From positions 43,702 through 107,701 of the forward strand of contig JAULBX010010325.1 in the NCBI GenBank assembly GCA_032358255.1: DNA of 64,000 bases. The letters run 5' to 3'. Shown here one piece after another: positions 2,705 to 59,115 of this stretch. The stretch's first letter is position 1; each line of letters starts with the position of its first letter. A program made the position numbers and the translations under genes. The notes below the pieces were generated by a model. It ran no database searches and was not told the DNA's origin. It was given only the letters and a program-made list of their open reading frames with translations. The stretch is from Heterotrichella gracilis. Its lineage: Eukaryota > Sar > Xanthophyceae > Tribonematales > Xanthonemataceae.

Positions 2705-2830
2705 GCGCGTCCATCCCCAGCTCAGCGAAAAACCCTATCGTGTCCTTCAGGGCCTCAACAATGCGTCCACCTCCCTAAGGGTTTGTAGACATACAAGGAG
2801 GCGTGGGCAGAGGCGGGGATCCCCAGCACG
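2705..2830 (-). repeat. Decayed copy of SufS terminal exon
   Basis: The segment repeats the real last exon at about 2890-3025, including the 'CCCAGCTCAGCGAAAAACCC' block (+ strand sense), but with indels and without the C-terminal codons kept in register. On the minus strand it lies just downstream of the SufS stop, so it is a 3' flank copy. Confidence 0.8.
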
Positions 2831-2899
2831 CGGCGAAGCCCAAACCCTGACTCTAGACCCTAAACTTGTACCCTACACCCCGGGTCAAAATCAGCGCGC

Positions 2900-5800
2900 C
2901 TACATGCCCAGCTCAGCGAAAAACCCTATCGTGTCCTTTAGTGCCTCAATAAACGCGTCCACCTCCCCTGGCGTGTTGTAAATGTACAGGGATGCGCGGG
3001 CAGATGCAGGGATCCCCAGCTCTCTGTGCAGAGGCTGCGTGCAGTGGTGGCCGGAGCGGATGGCGATGCCTGTGAGGGTGGGGTGATGGGGGTGATAAGG
3101 GGGTGGCGCAGGTGGGAGTCGTGGGTGGACGGCTGTATGCAGTGGTGGCGGTGTGGAAGGTGTGGGAGCGAGGGTTGAATTGGCGTTTCACTGAGCGTGG
3201 CAGGGCGAGGTGTCAATGATCACATGGACCCTTTCCAGCAAGAGGATGAGCCCTGTGGTGGGTCCAGTAGCATCCAGTGGCGGGCACACCATTAGGAATC
3301 TACACATCCAGGGTCTAAGGGCTTAGGGTGTGCGCACCTGACTGGTCCAGCAGCGTTGCCACATCAGTGGCATGTAGCCCCTCTACATTGAATGCAGCCA
3401 GTGACGCCCTGGGGGCACCCGCCTTAGGGCCGTAGATGGTAACGCGATCCAGGGCGCTGAGCTGCAGGTGGGGTGGGGTGGGTGGGTTTAGGGTTCAGGG
3501 TTTAGTATTTAGCAGGAAGCGTACATGGTGACACGGTCCAGGGCGCTGAGCTGCAGGGGGTGAAGGGTGGTAGGTGGCAGGTAGTGGGGAGGTGCATAGG
3601 GTGGTGGGGGGCACGCTAGGTGGGGGTGTGCAGATGGCGGTGTTGGGGGATGGGTGATTGAAGCAGAACCTCAACCGCGCAAGATCAATGGGTAATATAA
3701 CCGGGGATGGGACGGCGTAATCGCGCACGAGCAAGGCTGCTATGCTAATATGGCTGGAACGCAGGGGAACTCAGTGACACACGAACCCCTTCCATCCTCC
3801 ACTATCTCACCTCCTGGTACAGGTATCCCCCAATCTCCTCCTCAAATCGGTGCACATTGTCCATCCCCAGACCAGACAAATACTGGCACGCTACCCCCAA
3901 GCCAATAGCCTCCCCAATGGCAGGGGTCCCTGCTTCAAAGCGTGCGGGTGGTGGGGCATATGTCGAGTGGTCCAGGAACACATCTTGGATCATTTCGCCA
4001 CCCCCCATCCAGGGGGGCATTTCAGAGAGGAGGTCATACCTGGGTGGGTGGGGTGGAGTGGGTTAAACTGCATATGCATGTTTATGACTGCATATGCTTT
4101 TACCATGCGCCGCTATTAACATTGTTATCAACATTTACGACTGATTATGCTACAGTTACCCCGTGACGCCACCTGGCAAGCTTCTCCCATGGGCAATGGC
4201 AGCAAATAACAGCACCGTCAAACAGAGAGTAGACTGACTGCTCCCCACCACCCACATCCCGGTATATCACAAATGGTCTGCAAGTGAAAATGGCATCCCC
4301 AGGAAGCCAATCCCCGTCCCCATCCCCATCCCCACCCACCTGCCCCACAGGAAGCCAATCCCCGTTGGCCCACACATCTTGTGCGCCGACGCCACCACCC
4401 AGTCTGCACCCAGCGCCCCCACATCCATCCCCATGTGGGGCACGCTCTGGCAGCAGTCCAGCAGCACCCTCGCTCCCACCCTCCTTGCCTGCTCAACCAC
4501 GTAGGCGGTGTCCAGCACGTACCCAAGCATGTTGCTGACGTGGACCAGCGAGATCAGCTGCAAGGGTGGGACGGGTAGGCGAGTGAGGGGCCTTGTCATT
4601 ACATTTGAATTTGGAAAAAAGAAGTCGTGCTTCTTTAGACCCCTCCAAGGATGCGGCTGCTGTAAACCACAGCAATCAGAGGCATTTCCGTGCGCTAAGA
4701 CGGGTCACCGGGGCAGCCGGACACCGGGCGCTCATTCTGTTGCATTCCACCACGGAGTCTTTCAGTCGCAGTGGCAAGCCCCTCTGACACAAATGCACTG
4801 ACTCGTACTGCTTGTACCTTTGTGTACGGCGTGATCATGTCCCGCAGTGCCCCCATGTCCAGCTGGGACTAGTCGGGCGTGAGGGGCACGTGGCGCAGGC
4901 AGGAATCAGCGCTGTGAACACACTTTGGGTCCACAAATACACTGCAATCCTTTTTTAAAACTTCCCCGTTCCCTGGATTTTATTTACAATTTCACCGCAT
5001 TTACCTTTGTGCGTGGCGTGATCATGCCCCGCAGTGCCCCCATGTCCAGCTGGGACTGGTCGGGGGTGAGGGGCACGTGGCGCAGGTGGGCCCCTGTGCG
5101 CTGCGCCAGCATCTGCCAGGGGACAAGGTTGGAGTGGTGCTCCGCAACAGACACAAGGATCTGCAGAAGGGAGAAACATTCAGGGCAGTTCAGTGTCACC
5201 GCTTGTGCAGGGGTGGTTTGAGATTGGGCAGGGATATAATAGGGTTTTGTCACGCTCACATCTGCCATGGCACCAGGTTGGAGTGGTGCTCCGCAACAGA
5301 CACCAAGATCTGCAGCGTCGGAAGTTAGCAGGCATTTAGATGGATTAAGTGGCAACCTACACATTACTCATGAGGGGCAGGGTATATGAGCTGGGTAGGG
5401 CATGCGCAGTGTTTCTAAGTGGCAGATTGGCAAAGGAGCCTAGGCTTGTGGCGGTGTCAAACCCCCATGTAATACACCCCCCCTCACGCCCAATAGTCAC
5501 CACCGCACCTACAATCATCACAACCAAACATCCTCCTCCCCTTCAAACGCTCCCACCACTCACCTCGTCCCCTGGCCCTATGTTCTGCAACCCCCATGTG
5601 TTGGCCACCAGGTTGATTGCCTCACTTGCCCCCCGGGTGAAAATAACCTCCTCAGGGCGGGCAGCGTGGATGAAAGAAGCAACCTGCTGCCTGGCCAGCT
5701 CATATTCATCGGTGGCGCGGGCGGACAGGTAGTGGACACCCCTGCGTGGAGGGGGCTCATGTTCAGTGGAGGGCTGATTATGTTATGAATGTAGTTGGTT

Positions 5801-58300: not shown

Positions 58301-58964
58301 AACTCCGCAATGTCAATAGGCCAGAGGGCGGCAATACATGTACTGCGCCTCCGCATACCTGGTCCTGAGCATTCAACAGATGAAACTTTGACCCCAGCTA
58401 AAGTGTGGCATAGTCTGAGTGGGAGGATGGTGCTCCTGGGTAGCTGTAGCCTAAACCATAACCCTAAGCTATAGCCTAAACCATAACCCTAGCTACACAG
58501 TGGCCCAGGCTGAACAGGAGGAGGGTGTCCCTGGGCCACACCCCAAACCCTTGATCTAAACCCTAAACCCTTAATTCAGCTGCACTCTAGCACAGGCCGT
58601 GGCTCTGAGCAATTGTTCCTGGGCCACACATCAAACCCTTCAGATAAACCCTAAACCCTGAACCAAGCTACACTGTGGCACAGGCTGACTAGCAGGAGGG
58701 TGTTCCTGGGCAACTGAACCCTACTTAAACCCTACCTCAACCCTAGACACCCATACTTAAACTTGAAACCCAGCTACACTGTGGCACAGGCTGACCAGGA
58801 GGAGGGTGTTCCTGGGCGGCTACGAGCTCCACGTCAAGAGGTCTTCCTTCACCGCACAGCAACAACGGACGACCGCCAGCATTGCAGAGCTTGCTGTTGC
58901 ACCAGCCGCCGAGGAGGGGTTGACCTACGAGGAGAATGACAACGTGATCCTGGACGACTTTTGA
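52361..58964 (+). CDS. Secreted polysaccharide-lyase-like (heparin-lyase-I-type jelly roll) protein
   Basis: Nine exons join in phase: 52361-52496, 53559-53785, 54093-54320, 54769-54968, 55271-55378, 55837-55941, 56372-56513, 57325-57491 and 58790-58964, giving 495 residues. Exon 1 is a signal peptide (RRLAVLIYTCALLLGTNAVR) and was chosen because its donor gives phase 1, exactly what exon 2 needs. A Thr/Pro/Ser-rich linker and a Cys/Lys/Arg-rich segment (KTTCSHLRCYQPS) precede the main domain. That domain reads RSEMRG, YTWSYFIPPD, LMAQWKYSP, LGKWITFRKEVKW, SDGYIRMYLNGKRL and FSYGLYKG, the order of the PF14099-type polysaccharide lyase fold. Catalysis and substrate are not shown, so it may bind rather than cut matrix polysaccharide. 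The C-terminus is acidic (EENDNVILDDF). Confidence 0.78.
52497..53558 (+). other. Intron 1 of the lyase-like gene
   Basis: A 1.06-kb intron with a GTGAGT donor and an ACTGCAG acceptor. Open frames on both strands inside it (for example 52876-53199 minus) have no recognised motif. It contains a CTAGCTAGT tandem near 53210-53230. Confidence 0.6.
53955..54030 (+). repeat. Copy of lyase-like exon 3 acceptor edge
   Basis: CCCCTCCCCGCATGTCAAAACCACC continues identically through CAGCACCTTCAAAACC, matching 54080-54146. The acceptor AG is changed to AT, so the copy cannot be used as a splice site. It lies upstream of the true acceptor. Confidence 0.95.
54321..54630 (+). repeat. Tandem copies of lyase-like exon 3 donor edge
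   Basis: ACGTGGACGTRTCSAGGGTG-CAGCTGCCGCCGGTGGG recurs near 54370-54406, 54440-54475 and 54531-54566, with a truncated copy at 54609-54630. The true junction is at 54290-54326. TTTAGGGTTT-type heptads separate the copies, giving a period of about 70-90 bases. Confidence 0.95.
56614..56963. repeat. About 350-base ATT/ATC triplet tract in intron 7 of the lyase-like gene
   Basis: Almost uninterrupted ATT triplets with scattered ATC and single ACT, AGT variants. It generates spurious poly-Ile and poly-Asn frames. It lies between the exon 7 donor and the exon 8 acceptor. Confidence 0.98.
57530..57608 (+). repeat. Copy of lyase-like exon 8 donor edge
   Basis: ACCATGCGCCTTTCTTCAGC through CTGTACAAGGGGACCTCCGG and CGACACACCACAAAGGTCGG repeats 57424-57496 with few changes and keeps an open frame and a GT donor. 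A third, decayed relative is at about 57858-57912. Confidence 0.95.
58400..58720 (+). repeat. Tandem copies of lyase-like last-exon acceptor edge
   Basis: CAGCTACACTGTGGCACAGG-CTGACCAGGAGGAGGGTGTTCCTGGG of the true junction (58771-58816) has four older relatives near 58397-58440, 58492-58537, 58577-58624 and 58667-58712, separated by AAACCCTAAACCC stretches. The one at 58667-58712 keeps the acceptor but carries an in-frame TAG. Confidence 0.95.
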
Positions 58965-59115
58965 CTGCAAGGAGAATGCTAGTGGATCACCTTTGATCTA
59001 TCGCGGAGATAGCATTAAATGACTCCTGACCTACGAGGAGGACGACAAGGTGATTTTGGATGACTTTCGAGCTGCCAGGAGAGGATGCTATTGAATCATT
59101 GCTGGCCAACCAGGG
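58965..59115 (+). repeat. Copies of lyase-like terminal exon end
   Basis: GACCTACGAGGAGGACGACA and GTGATTTTGGATGACTTTCG at 59029-59070 repeat the last codons of the gene (58922-58963), downstream of the stop. A small relative, CAAGGAGAATG, is at 58968. Confidence 0.88.

What the first reader, a model, noticed from the sequence alone, without database searches (positions are those of the whole stretch)
2705..59115. Introns built from decayed copies of their own splice junctions
Across at least eight genes on both strands, most exon-intron junctions have one to six partial copies beside them. Each copy contains part of the exon, the splice site and some intron. Copies of 3' exon edges always lie after the true donor, and copies of 5' edges always lie before the true acceptor. 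More than 35 such copies are listed in the features, with divergence from a few changes (33852, 57530) to barely recognisable. The simplest reading is repeated tandem duplication across junctions: splicing keeps the outermost pair, and the inner copy becomes intron and decays. This would be a continuing mode of intron growth that also leaves decoy splice sites. I do not know of a described case with this density.
Basis: partly seen in the sequence, partly recalled or inferred. Interest (0 to 1): 0.88.

Follow-up and report, generated by a model that had tools for sequence, protein, structure and literature searches.

The report
Exon edges copied into neighbouring introns
In this alga-like genome about one splice junction in five, in affected regions, has a decaying copy of its own exon edge lying in the adjacent intron; the copies go with longer introns and leave spare splice sites, and they come from exon edges far more often than random local duplication would predict.

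Summary
A self-trained gene finder, checked against HSP70, chaperonin and several Pfam genes, gave exon models for 325 kb (64 kb window plus 261 kb of other contigs). These hold 268 local direct duplicate pairs (1 in shuffled sequence). In 155 pairs one copy is exonic or spans a splice site and the other lies in an intron; in 33 of these both copies look coding and the call is uncertain. Donor-spanning copies have the spare copy downstream in 61 of 63 pairs, acceptor-spanning ones upstream in 46 of 49. The spare copies decay roughly as neutral DNA, and introns holding duplicates are longer (median 386 against 257 bp). 'Most junctions' is too strong: 36 of 172 in the window. Plain tandem duplication explains only part: of 52 pairs with exon parts at least 85% alike, 26 have unrelated adjoining intron, where simulated decay would be seen in 97-100% of trials. 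Young genic families are exon-linked in 36 of 39 cases (27 of 30 without uncertain pairs), against 35% expected. I read it as recurrent short-range DNA duplication during break repair or replication, biased to exon borders and hidden by splicing. The molecular cause is not shown. New variant of a known kind.

The parts
2900..6435 (-). Class V aminotransferase gene (cysteine desulfurase-like), 8 exons in my model, four exon-linked pairs
   Evidence: Joined exons match Pfam Aminotran_5, E 5.8e-130; pairs listed
4807..4899 (-). Spare copy of the 3' end and donor of exon 5005-5160, in the intron; 90% identical to 4994-5086, spacer 94 bp
   Evidence: spacer found only at its own place; an in-frame stop is visible in the sequence
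5259..5315 (-). Spare copy of the acceptor and 5' end of exon 5005-5160 (true copy 5110-5166), 91%, spacer 92 bp
5851..5951 (-). Spare copy of the acceptor and 5' end of exon 5564-5741 (true copy 5645-5745), 86%, spacer 105 bp; both copies look coding to the gene finder
741..791 (+). Spare tandem copy of the end of exon 520-684, 94%; intron part also duplicated (tandem class)
14552..14655 (+). Spare copy of the end of exon 14250-14430 with donor, 92%
20025..20103 (+). Spare copy of the first 79 bp or so of exon 20206-20371, 94%, spacer 104 bp
   Evidence: spacer found only at its own place
21817..21877 (+). Spare copy of the end of exon 21696-21782 with donor, 90%
29997..30078 (+). Spare copy of the end of exon 29730-29889 plus 8 bp of donor, 96%; spacer 99 bp and following intron unrelated (spaced class)
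33846..33932 (-). Spare copy of the end of exon 33999-34166 with donor, 97% (true copy 33993-34079)
33637..33673 (-). Spare copy of the start of exon 33420-33540, 92%
34777..34995 (-). Two further copies (34777-34835, 34897-34958) of the end of exon 35041-35188: a three-copy array
35655..35899 (-). Tandem array of copies of the start of exon 35362-35549 and its upstream intron, 90-95%
45931..45977 (-). Spare copy of the end of exon 46108-46308 of the tubulin-tyrosine-ligase-like gene, 89%
   Evidence: TTL E 1.3e-33 for the part of the protein searched
46440..46506 (-). Spare copy of the start of exon 46108-46308, 89-100%
54360..54631 (+). Three further copies of the end of exon 54093-54320 with donor, 78-83%
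57535..57640 (+). Spare tandem copy of the end of exon 57325-57491 plus 38 bp of intron, 93%
58383..58711 (+). Array of degraded copies of the start of exon 58790-58964 with CCCTAAA-rich tracts, 78-88% to the exon

Best explanation
Short stretches of DNA (about 30-120 bp) at exon borders are repeatedly copied in direct orientation into the adjacent intron, mostly 60-220 bp away, by error-prone DNA repair or replication. Some events are plain tandem duplications across the junction; more of the detectable ones are spaced, with an unrelated spacer. Splicing keeps the outer splice site, so the inner copy is removed with the intron, is invisible to the protein, and decays. Introns in affected regions grow this way and carry leftover splice sites. 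Shown: the copies, their place and direction, their decay, the excess of exon borders, the lack of strong inverted copies and of spliced-RNA-like copies, the link with longer introns. Inferred: that the copying happens at DNA level during break repair or replication, that the outer sites are the ones used, and why exon borders are favoured.
For: 268 pairs against 1 in a shuffle. 155 of 268 pairs join exon or junction to intron; 122 remain when 33 pairs in which both copies look coding are dropped. In homology-confirmed genes 37 of 56 pairs overlap an exon (for the 13 in the window the exon comes from my model of a Pfam-matched gene). Splice dinucleotides of spare copies decay at the neutral rate; in-frame stops occur (16 of 2351 codons, 15 of 145 pairs). 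Joined outer exons give strong Aminotran_5, Fasciclin and TTL matches. Seven spacers, of 15 listed, were searched and each was found only at its own place (the search scores best candidates only and skips simple repeats). No copy joins two exons (0 of 429 joins, ungapped test). Young genic families are exon-linked 36 of 39, or 27 of 30 without uncertain pairs. Nearest offsets lie at 60-219 bp in 104 of 119. Telomere-like 6-mers cover 12.2% of spacers, 9.3% of intronic copies, 4.0% of other intron in rich loci and 2.1% of intron in poor loci, a mark reported at repaired breaks (Nergadze et al. 2007, passages read).
Against: No RNA evidence that the outer sites are used. No outgroup, so the birth of a copy is never seen. 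In unmasked gene models 62 of 268 pairs have both copies called exon; which copy is spare there rests on a masking score. Spare-to-spare differences show a mild third-position excess once uncertain pairs are dropped (55/369, 49/371, 77/377), and exon-to-spare differences a strong one (31/627, 33/623, 77/628 at 88% or more), more than I estimate for one neutral copy against one constrained exon. Telomere-like motifs do not show the end-specific orientation expected if telomerase capped both broken ends, and 30 of 78 spacers have none. The exon bias is not explained by GC content.
Confidence: 0.57

Rival explanations
1. One reading: random tandem duplication everywhere, with splicing as a filter and the exon as a slow clock that keeps old copies visible.
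For: 13 of 64 better-preserved pairs are adjacent. Where the flank is similar its identity, read by eye from local alignments, is mostly compatible with neutral decay (e.g. 54278, L004 1217, L018 4307), sometimes lower (634).
Against: Young families 36 exon-linked of 39 genic, expected 21%, or 35% allowing twice the persistence, p about 1e-13; 27 of 30, p 7e-10, without uncertain pairs. Intron flank unrelated in 26 of 52 pairs of 85% or more with power 0.97-1.0. Of six pairs at 95% or more, one has a borderline similar flank; in gapped extension two of the six run 38 and 45 bp into the intron, and three of the six are among the uncertain pairs.
Confidence: 0.2
2. Old tandem duplications whose exon halves are kept alike by gene conversion from the true exon while the intron halves drift apart.
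For: Similarity often ends near the limit of functional constraint: 36 of 68 donor-side pairs end 0-14 bp past the donor, 28 of 43 acceptor-side pairs 3-36 bp before the acceptor. Third-position excess between exon and spare copy.
Against: Flank similarity looks two-state by eye. Conversion should also keep intron-only duplicates young, and these are rare.
Confidence: 0.12
3. Some spare copies are used coding sequence: alternative exon ends or in-frame coding repeats.
For: Both copies look coding in 33 of 155 exon-linked pairs, 12 of them in L001 7.0-9.9 kb; third-position excess.
Against: Stops, frame-breaking indels and loss of splice dinucleotides in others.
Confidence: 0.07
4. RNA-templated repair copying pre-mRNA exon borders into nearby introns.
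For: Copies favour exons plus a few intron bases and lie in sense orientation.
Against: No copy spans an exon-exon join (0 of 429); some copies extend far into the intron. Poly(A) tails and copies in distant genes were not looked for.
Confidence: 0.05
5. Assembly artefact from haplotypes or mixed strains.
For: The assembly holds low-GC loci that look non-algal (GC 0.326 and 0.367).
Against: Exon-linked copies span 64-100% identity, seven spacers are single-copy, and rich and poor loci share codon usage (r 0.978). No reads could be checked.
Confidence: 0.03

Closest known systems
Tandem duplication across an intron-exon border in the potato RdRp gene (Ma, Lan and Niu 2016, PMC4974935; abstract and results section read)
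   Same: A direct duplication that includes the 3' end of an intron, its splice signals and the start of the exon.
   Different: One event, found by comparing species, which created an extra intron and exon; here many copies lie inside existing introns.
Intron gain by tandem duplication of an AGGT-bearing exon segment (Rogers model; review PMC3443670, passages read)
   Same: Short direct duplication made harmless by splicing.
   Different: That model puts the two copies at the two ends of the new intron; none of 514 introns in unmasked models or 489 in masked models is arranged so.
Telomeric repeat insertion at repaired double-strand breaks in mammals (Nergadze et al. 2007, PMC2246262, passages read)
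   Same: Telomere-like repeats sit beside short duplications of flanking sequence in a minority of cases.
   Different: There duplications are 4.6% (rodents) and 16% (primates) of events; here duplication is the main feature, 30 of 78 spacers lack telomere motifs, and the sites are exon borders.
Short direct repeats near intron borders (Rogers and Bendich 2025, PMC11782384, abstract and first part of results read)
   Same: Direct repeats at splice borders, there taken as marks of insertion.
   Different: Those are 4-30 bp pairs linking the two ends of one intron; these are mostly 30-120 bp copies of one border inside the intron.
Introner elements (recalled, not looked up)
   Same: A process that puts new sequence into genes as introns in some algae.
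   Different: Introners are repeated families; the seven spacers tested here are single-copy.

Membership tests
Junction-spanning tandem duplication | Copy and original adjacent, with the intron part duplicated too | tested here: inconclusive
   Met in a part only: 13 of 64 adjacent, 33 of 76 with similar intron flank
Intron gain by tandem duplication (Rogers type) | The two copies lie at the two ends of the intron | tested here: not met
   0 of 514 introns in unmasked and 0 of 489 in masked models
Introner or other mobile element | Inserted sequence repeated in the genome | tested here: not met
   7 of 15 listed spacers searched, each found only at its own place
Telomeric insertion at double-strand breaks | Telomeric repeats between the copies | tested here: inconclusive
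   48 of 78 spacers hold at least one telomere-like 6-mer; orientation pattern by end not seen
Tandem or mutually exclusive exons | Both copies whole exons under coding constraint | tested here: not met
   Copies are exon edges; splice dinucleotides decay; stops in 15 of 145 pairs. 33 pairs remain uncertain
Retro- or mRNA-templated copies | Copies that join consecutive exons | tested here: not met
   0 of 429 exon-exon joins found
Any of these | Outer splice sites used in RNA | not testable with these tools
   No transcript data held

The most novel reading that the evidence does not exclude
A DNA copying process that is directed to exon borders: fragments of an exon edge with its splice signal are re-inserted into the neighbouring intron at preferred distances near 100 and 195 bp (37 of 119 nearest offsets at 80-119 bp, 39 at 180-219 bp), making introns grow out of their own flanking exons and loading genes with competing splice sites.
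Probability: 0.3. Interest if true: 0.85.

Novelty: new variant of a known kind. Interest (0 to 1): 0.66.

Why it matters
Intron lengthening is usually put down to transposons. Here a genome appears to lengthen introns from its own exon edges, at about a fifth of junctions in affected regions, and leaves dozens of decaying copies of real splice sites beside the true ones. That gives a natural experiment on how the spliceosome chooses between near-identical sites, and a record, dated by decay, of local duplication. The exon bias, if it holds genome-wide, would mean that a mutational process recognises exon borders or something that goes with them, such as nucleosomes or transcription.

Tried and rejected
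Uniform duplication with a splicing filter as sole cause: disfavoured. Mature-mRNA template: disfavoured. Repeated element as spacer: not seen for 7 spacers. GC content as the driver: exon GC at junctions with and without copies is the same, and GC-matched intron is covered less. Two mixed species as the reason for rich and poor loci: codon usage and splice consensus agree, and the HSP70 and chaperonin gene counts fit one alga as far as I recall such counts. Telomerase healing of both ends: the predicted left-right orientation is not seen. Mismatch clustering as a sign of conversion: present also in intron-only pairs, so uninformative. A recent paralogue to polarise events (LRR gene): only short, mostly low-complexity stretches matched; loci L041-L044 from that call were not used. 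BLAST passes with filters lost known pairs, so counts come from a diagonal scan, which drops low-complexity copies and splits or misses copies broken by indels. My masking step chooses one copy of each pair as spare, so the lack of exon-exon pairs is partly by construction; one search was run to show what changes without it. Loci L008 and L021 (low GC) and L023 (overlaps L029) were left out of the counts. The organism could not be named: the 18S search did not complete.
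Full report
Setting. The window is G000:C105:43702-107701 of a 68.5 Mb, 903-contig assembly. It has spliceosomal introns (learned consensus CAG|GTGAG and TGCAG|G), 43 exon-level matches to the chlorophyll-binding family in the assembly and TTTAGGG-type motifs, so a green alga or plant is likely; the species was not identified. Two loci of low GC (L008, L021) look non-algal.

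Gene models. No annotation exists, so I trained a small hidden Markov gene finder on the window and fetched loci. Its exons mostly agree with profile matches to HSP70 genes. Joined exons of window genes match Aminotran_5 (5.8e-130), TTL (1.3e-33, part of the protein searched) and Fasciclin (6.4e-21), with weaker matches to a glycosyltransferase, a GHMP kinase, AAA/adenylate kinase and a PRMT C-terminal domain; two of nine sequences matched nothing. Where a copy might be mistaken for an exon, I masked each copy in turn and kept the better-scoring model. Before masking, both copies are called exon in 62 of 268 pairs, one in 120 and none in 86; of the 155 pairs classed as exon-linked after masking, 33 look coding on both sides, 12 of them in L001 7.0-9.9 kb. 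Some models are wrong, for instance the ATT repeat at 56615-56959 called exon and several genes fused at 6453-31002.

The observation. A scan of all diagonals at offsets 40-700 found 268 direct pairs in 325 kb and 1 in a shuffle. By place, read 5' to 3': junction then intron 61, intron then junction 46, exon then intron 34, intron then exon 14, intron-intron 93 (many are copies of copies), intergenic 14, exon or junction with intergenic 6. Inverted pairs are few and weak (13 against 123 direct at 30 bits or more). In the window 36 of 172 junctions have a copy; in duplicate-rich loci 63 of 245 donors and 37 of 255 acceptors. In genes confirmed by homology 37 of 56 pairs overlap an exon. The effect is patchy: of 38 loci 16 are rich and 14 poor, in the same codon usage (r 0.978), and density follows telomere-like motifs (rho 0.67, p 4e-6).

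The spare copies decay. Their GT and AG are lost at the rate of the rest and in-frame stops are present. Between two spare copies of one exon, mismatches by codon position are 21.0, 26.8 and 24.8%, but 14.9, 13.2 and 20.4% without uncertain pairs. The mild third-position excess could arise if spare copies left the exon at different times and carry its synonymous changes; that is inference. Exon against spare at 88% or more differs by 4.4, 4.5 and 12.9%, or 4.9, 5.3 and 12.3% without uncertain pairs, more than I expect from one neutral and one constrained copy. Of 93 spare sites, 62 still score above the 10th percentile of real splice sites, so the true sites have many near-identical rivals.

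Intron growth. In rich loci introns covered by duplicates have median 386 bp (n 101) against 257 bp (n 183), p 2e-9; without the duplicated bases they come to 278 bp. For 66 introns with one exon-linked copy, subtracting the copy gives 290 bp and subtracting copy plus spacer gives 190 bp, a weak hint that the spacer is old intron and only the copy is new. Long introns are also larger targets, so this is not proof.

Two kinds of event. In 33 of 76 pairs the intron beyond the splice signal is also similar; in 43 it is not. For exon identity of 85% or more the split is 26 and 26. Simulated neutral decay of 60-bp flanks at exon identities of 86-97% is detected in 97-100% of trials; lower identities were not simulated. 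Of six pairs at 95% or more one, at the border of significance, shows flank similarity. With gapped extension 51 of 64 pairs are spaced by more than 15 bp; 12 of these have offsets above 225 bp and may skip a middle copy. In many the copy ends near the splice signal: 36 of 68 donor-side pairs end 0-14 bp past the donor, while 20 of 68 end before the exon does, and with gapped extension some run 30-80 bp or more into the intron.

Exon bias. Grouped into families, 109 of 148 are exon-linked, 27 intron-only, 12 intergenic; of 40 young families 36, 3 and 1. Without uncertain pairs the counts are 91, 30 and 12, and of 31 young ones 27, 3 and 1. Random placement with the rule that mRNA must stay intact predicts 21% exon-linked among genic families, or 35% if exon-linked pairs stay visible twice as long. 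GC content does not explain it. The estimate depends on my gene models and on a simple tolerance rule.

Mechanism. Direct orientation, single-copy spacers in the seven searched, lack of spliced copies and enrichment of telomere-like motifs point to DNA break repair or replication rather than RNA or mobile elements. Preferred offsets of 80-119 and 180-219 bp (37 and 39 of 119) recall nucleosome or Okazaki-fragment spacing, which is inference. Why exon borders are favoured is open. Gene conversion between exon and copy is the main conservative alternative.

Literature. Nine full-text searches were run. The nearest precedent found is a single potato gene. I saw no description of this density or exon bias in those listings; they show only the best-ranked papers and subscription journals are mostly not held, so this is a limited statement.

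Noticed in passing
window introns, e.g. 36148-36175, 55408-55428, 57615-57658; L018 3842-4322: Telomere-like CCCTAAA/TTTAGGG motifs are common in introns and oriented: in the last third of introns the C-rich form is in sense (C 335, G 87). In L018 such tracts sit just before each copied acceptor and may serve as branch point and pyrimidine tract.
   Followed up: partly
window 33398-33418, 34280-34299, 34419-34438, 30897-30959: Short palindromes of the form AACCCT...AGGGTT, outward-facing telomere-like halves, recur in and near genes.
   Followed up: no
38 loci of one genome: Duplicate-rich and duplicate-poor loci have the same codon usage; poor ones include BiP, a cytosolic HSP70 and a plastid-type HSP70 gene, rich ones the mitochondrial-type HSP70 (labels from my reading of the sequences).
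   Followed up: partly
L001 9395-9870: A region with many 64-87% direct pairs in which both copies look coding: probably an in-frame coding repeat, and the source of all five exceptions to the direction rule.
   Followed up: partly
window 56615-56959: 345 bp ATT microsatellite inside a gene region, read by my gene finder as poly-isoleucine exon, more likely intron.
   Followed up: no
window 63524-63764: 45-bp minisatellite that stays in frame, coding a glycine- and aspartate-rich repeat.
   Followed up: no
window 30078-30120: Perfect 21-bp tandem repeat starting where a 96% spare exon copy ends.
   Followed up: no
L008 (G000:C92), L021 (G000:C331): Loci of 33% and 37% GC, not run through the gene finder's final models; probably non-algal sequence in the assembly.
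   Followed up: no
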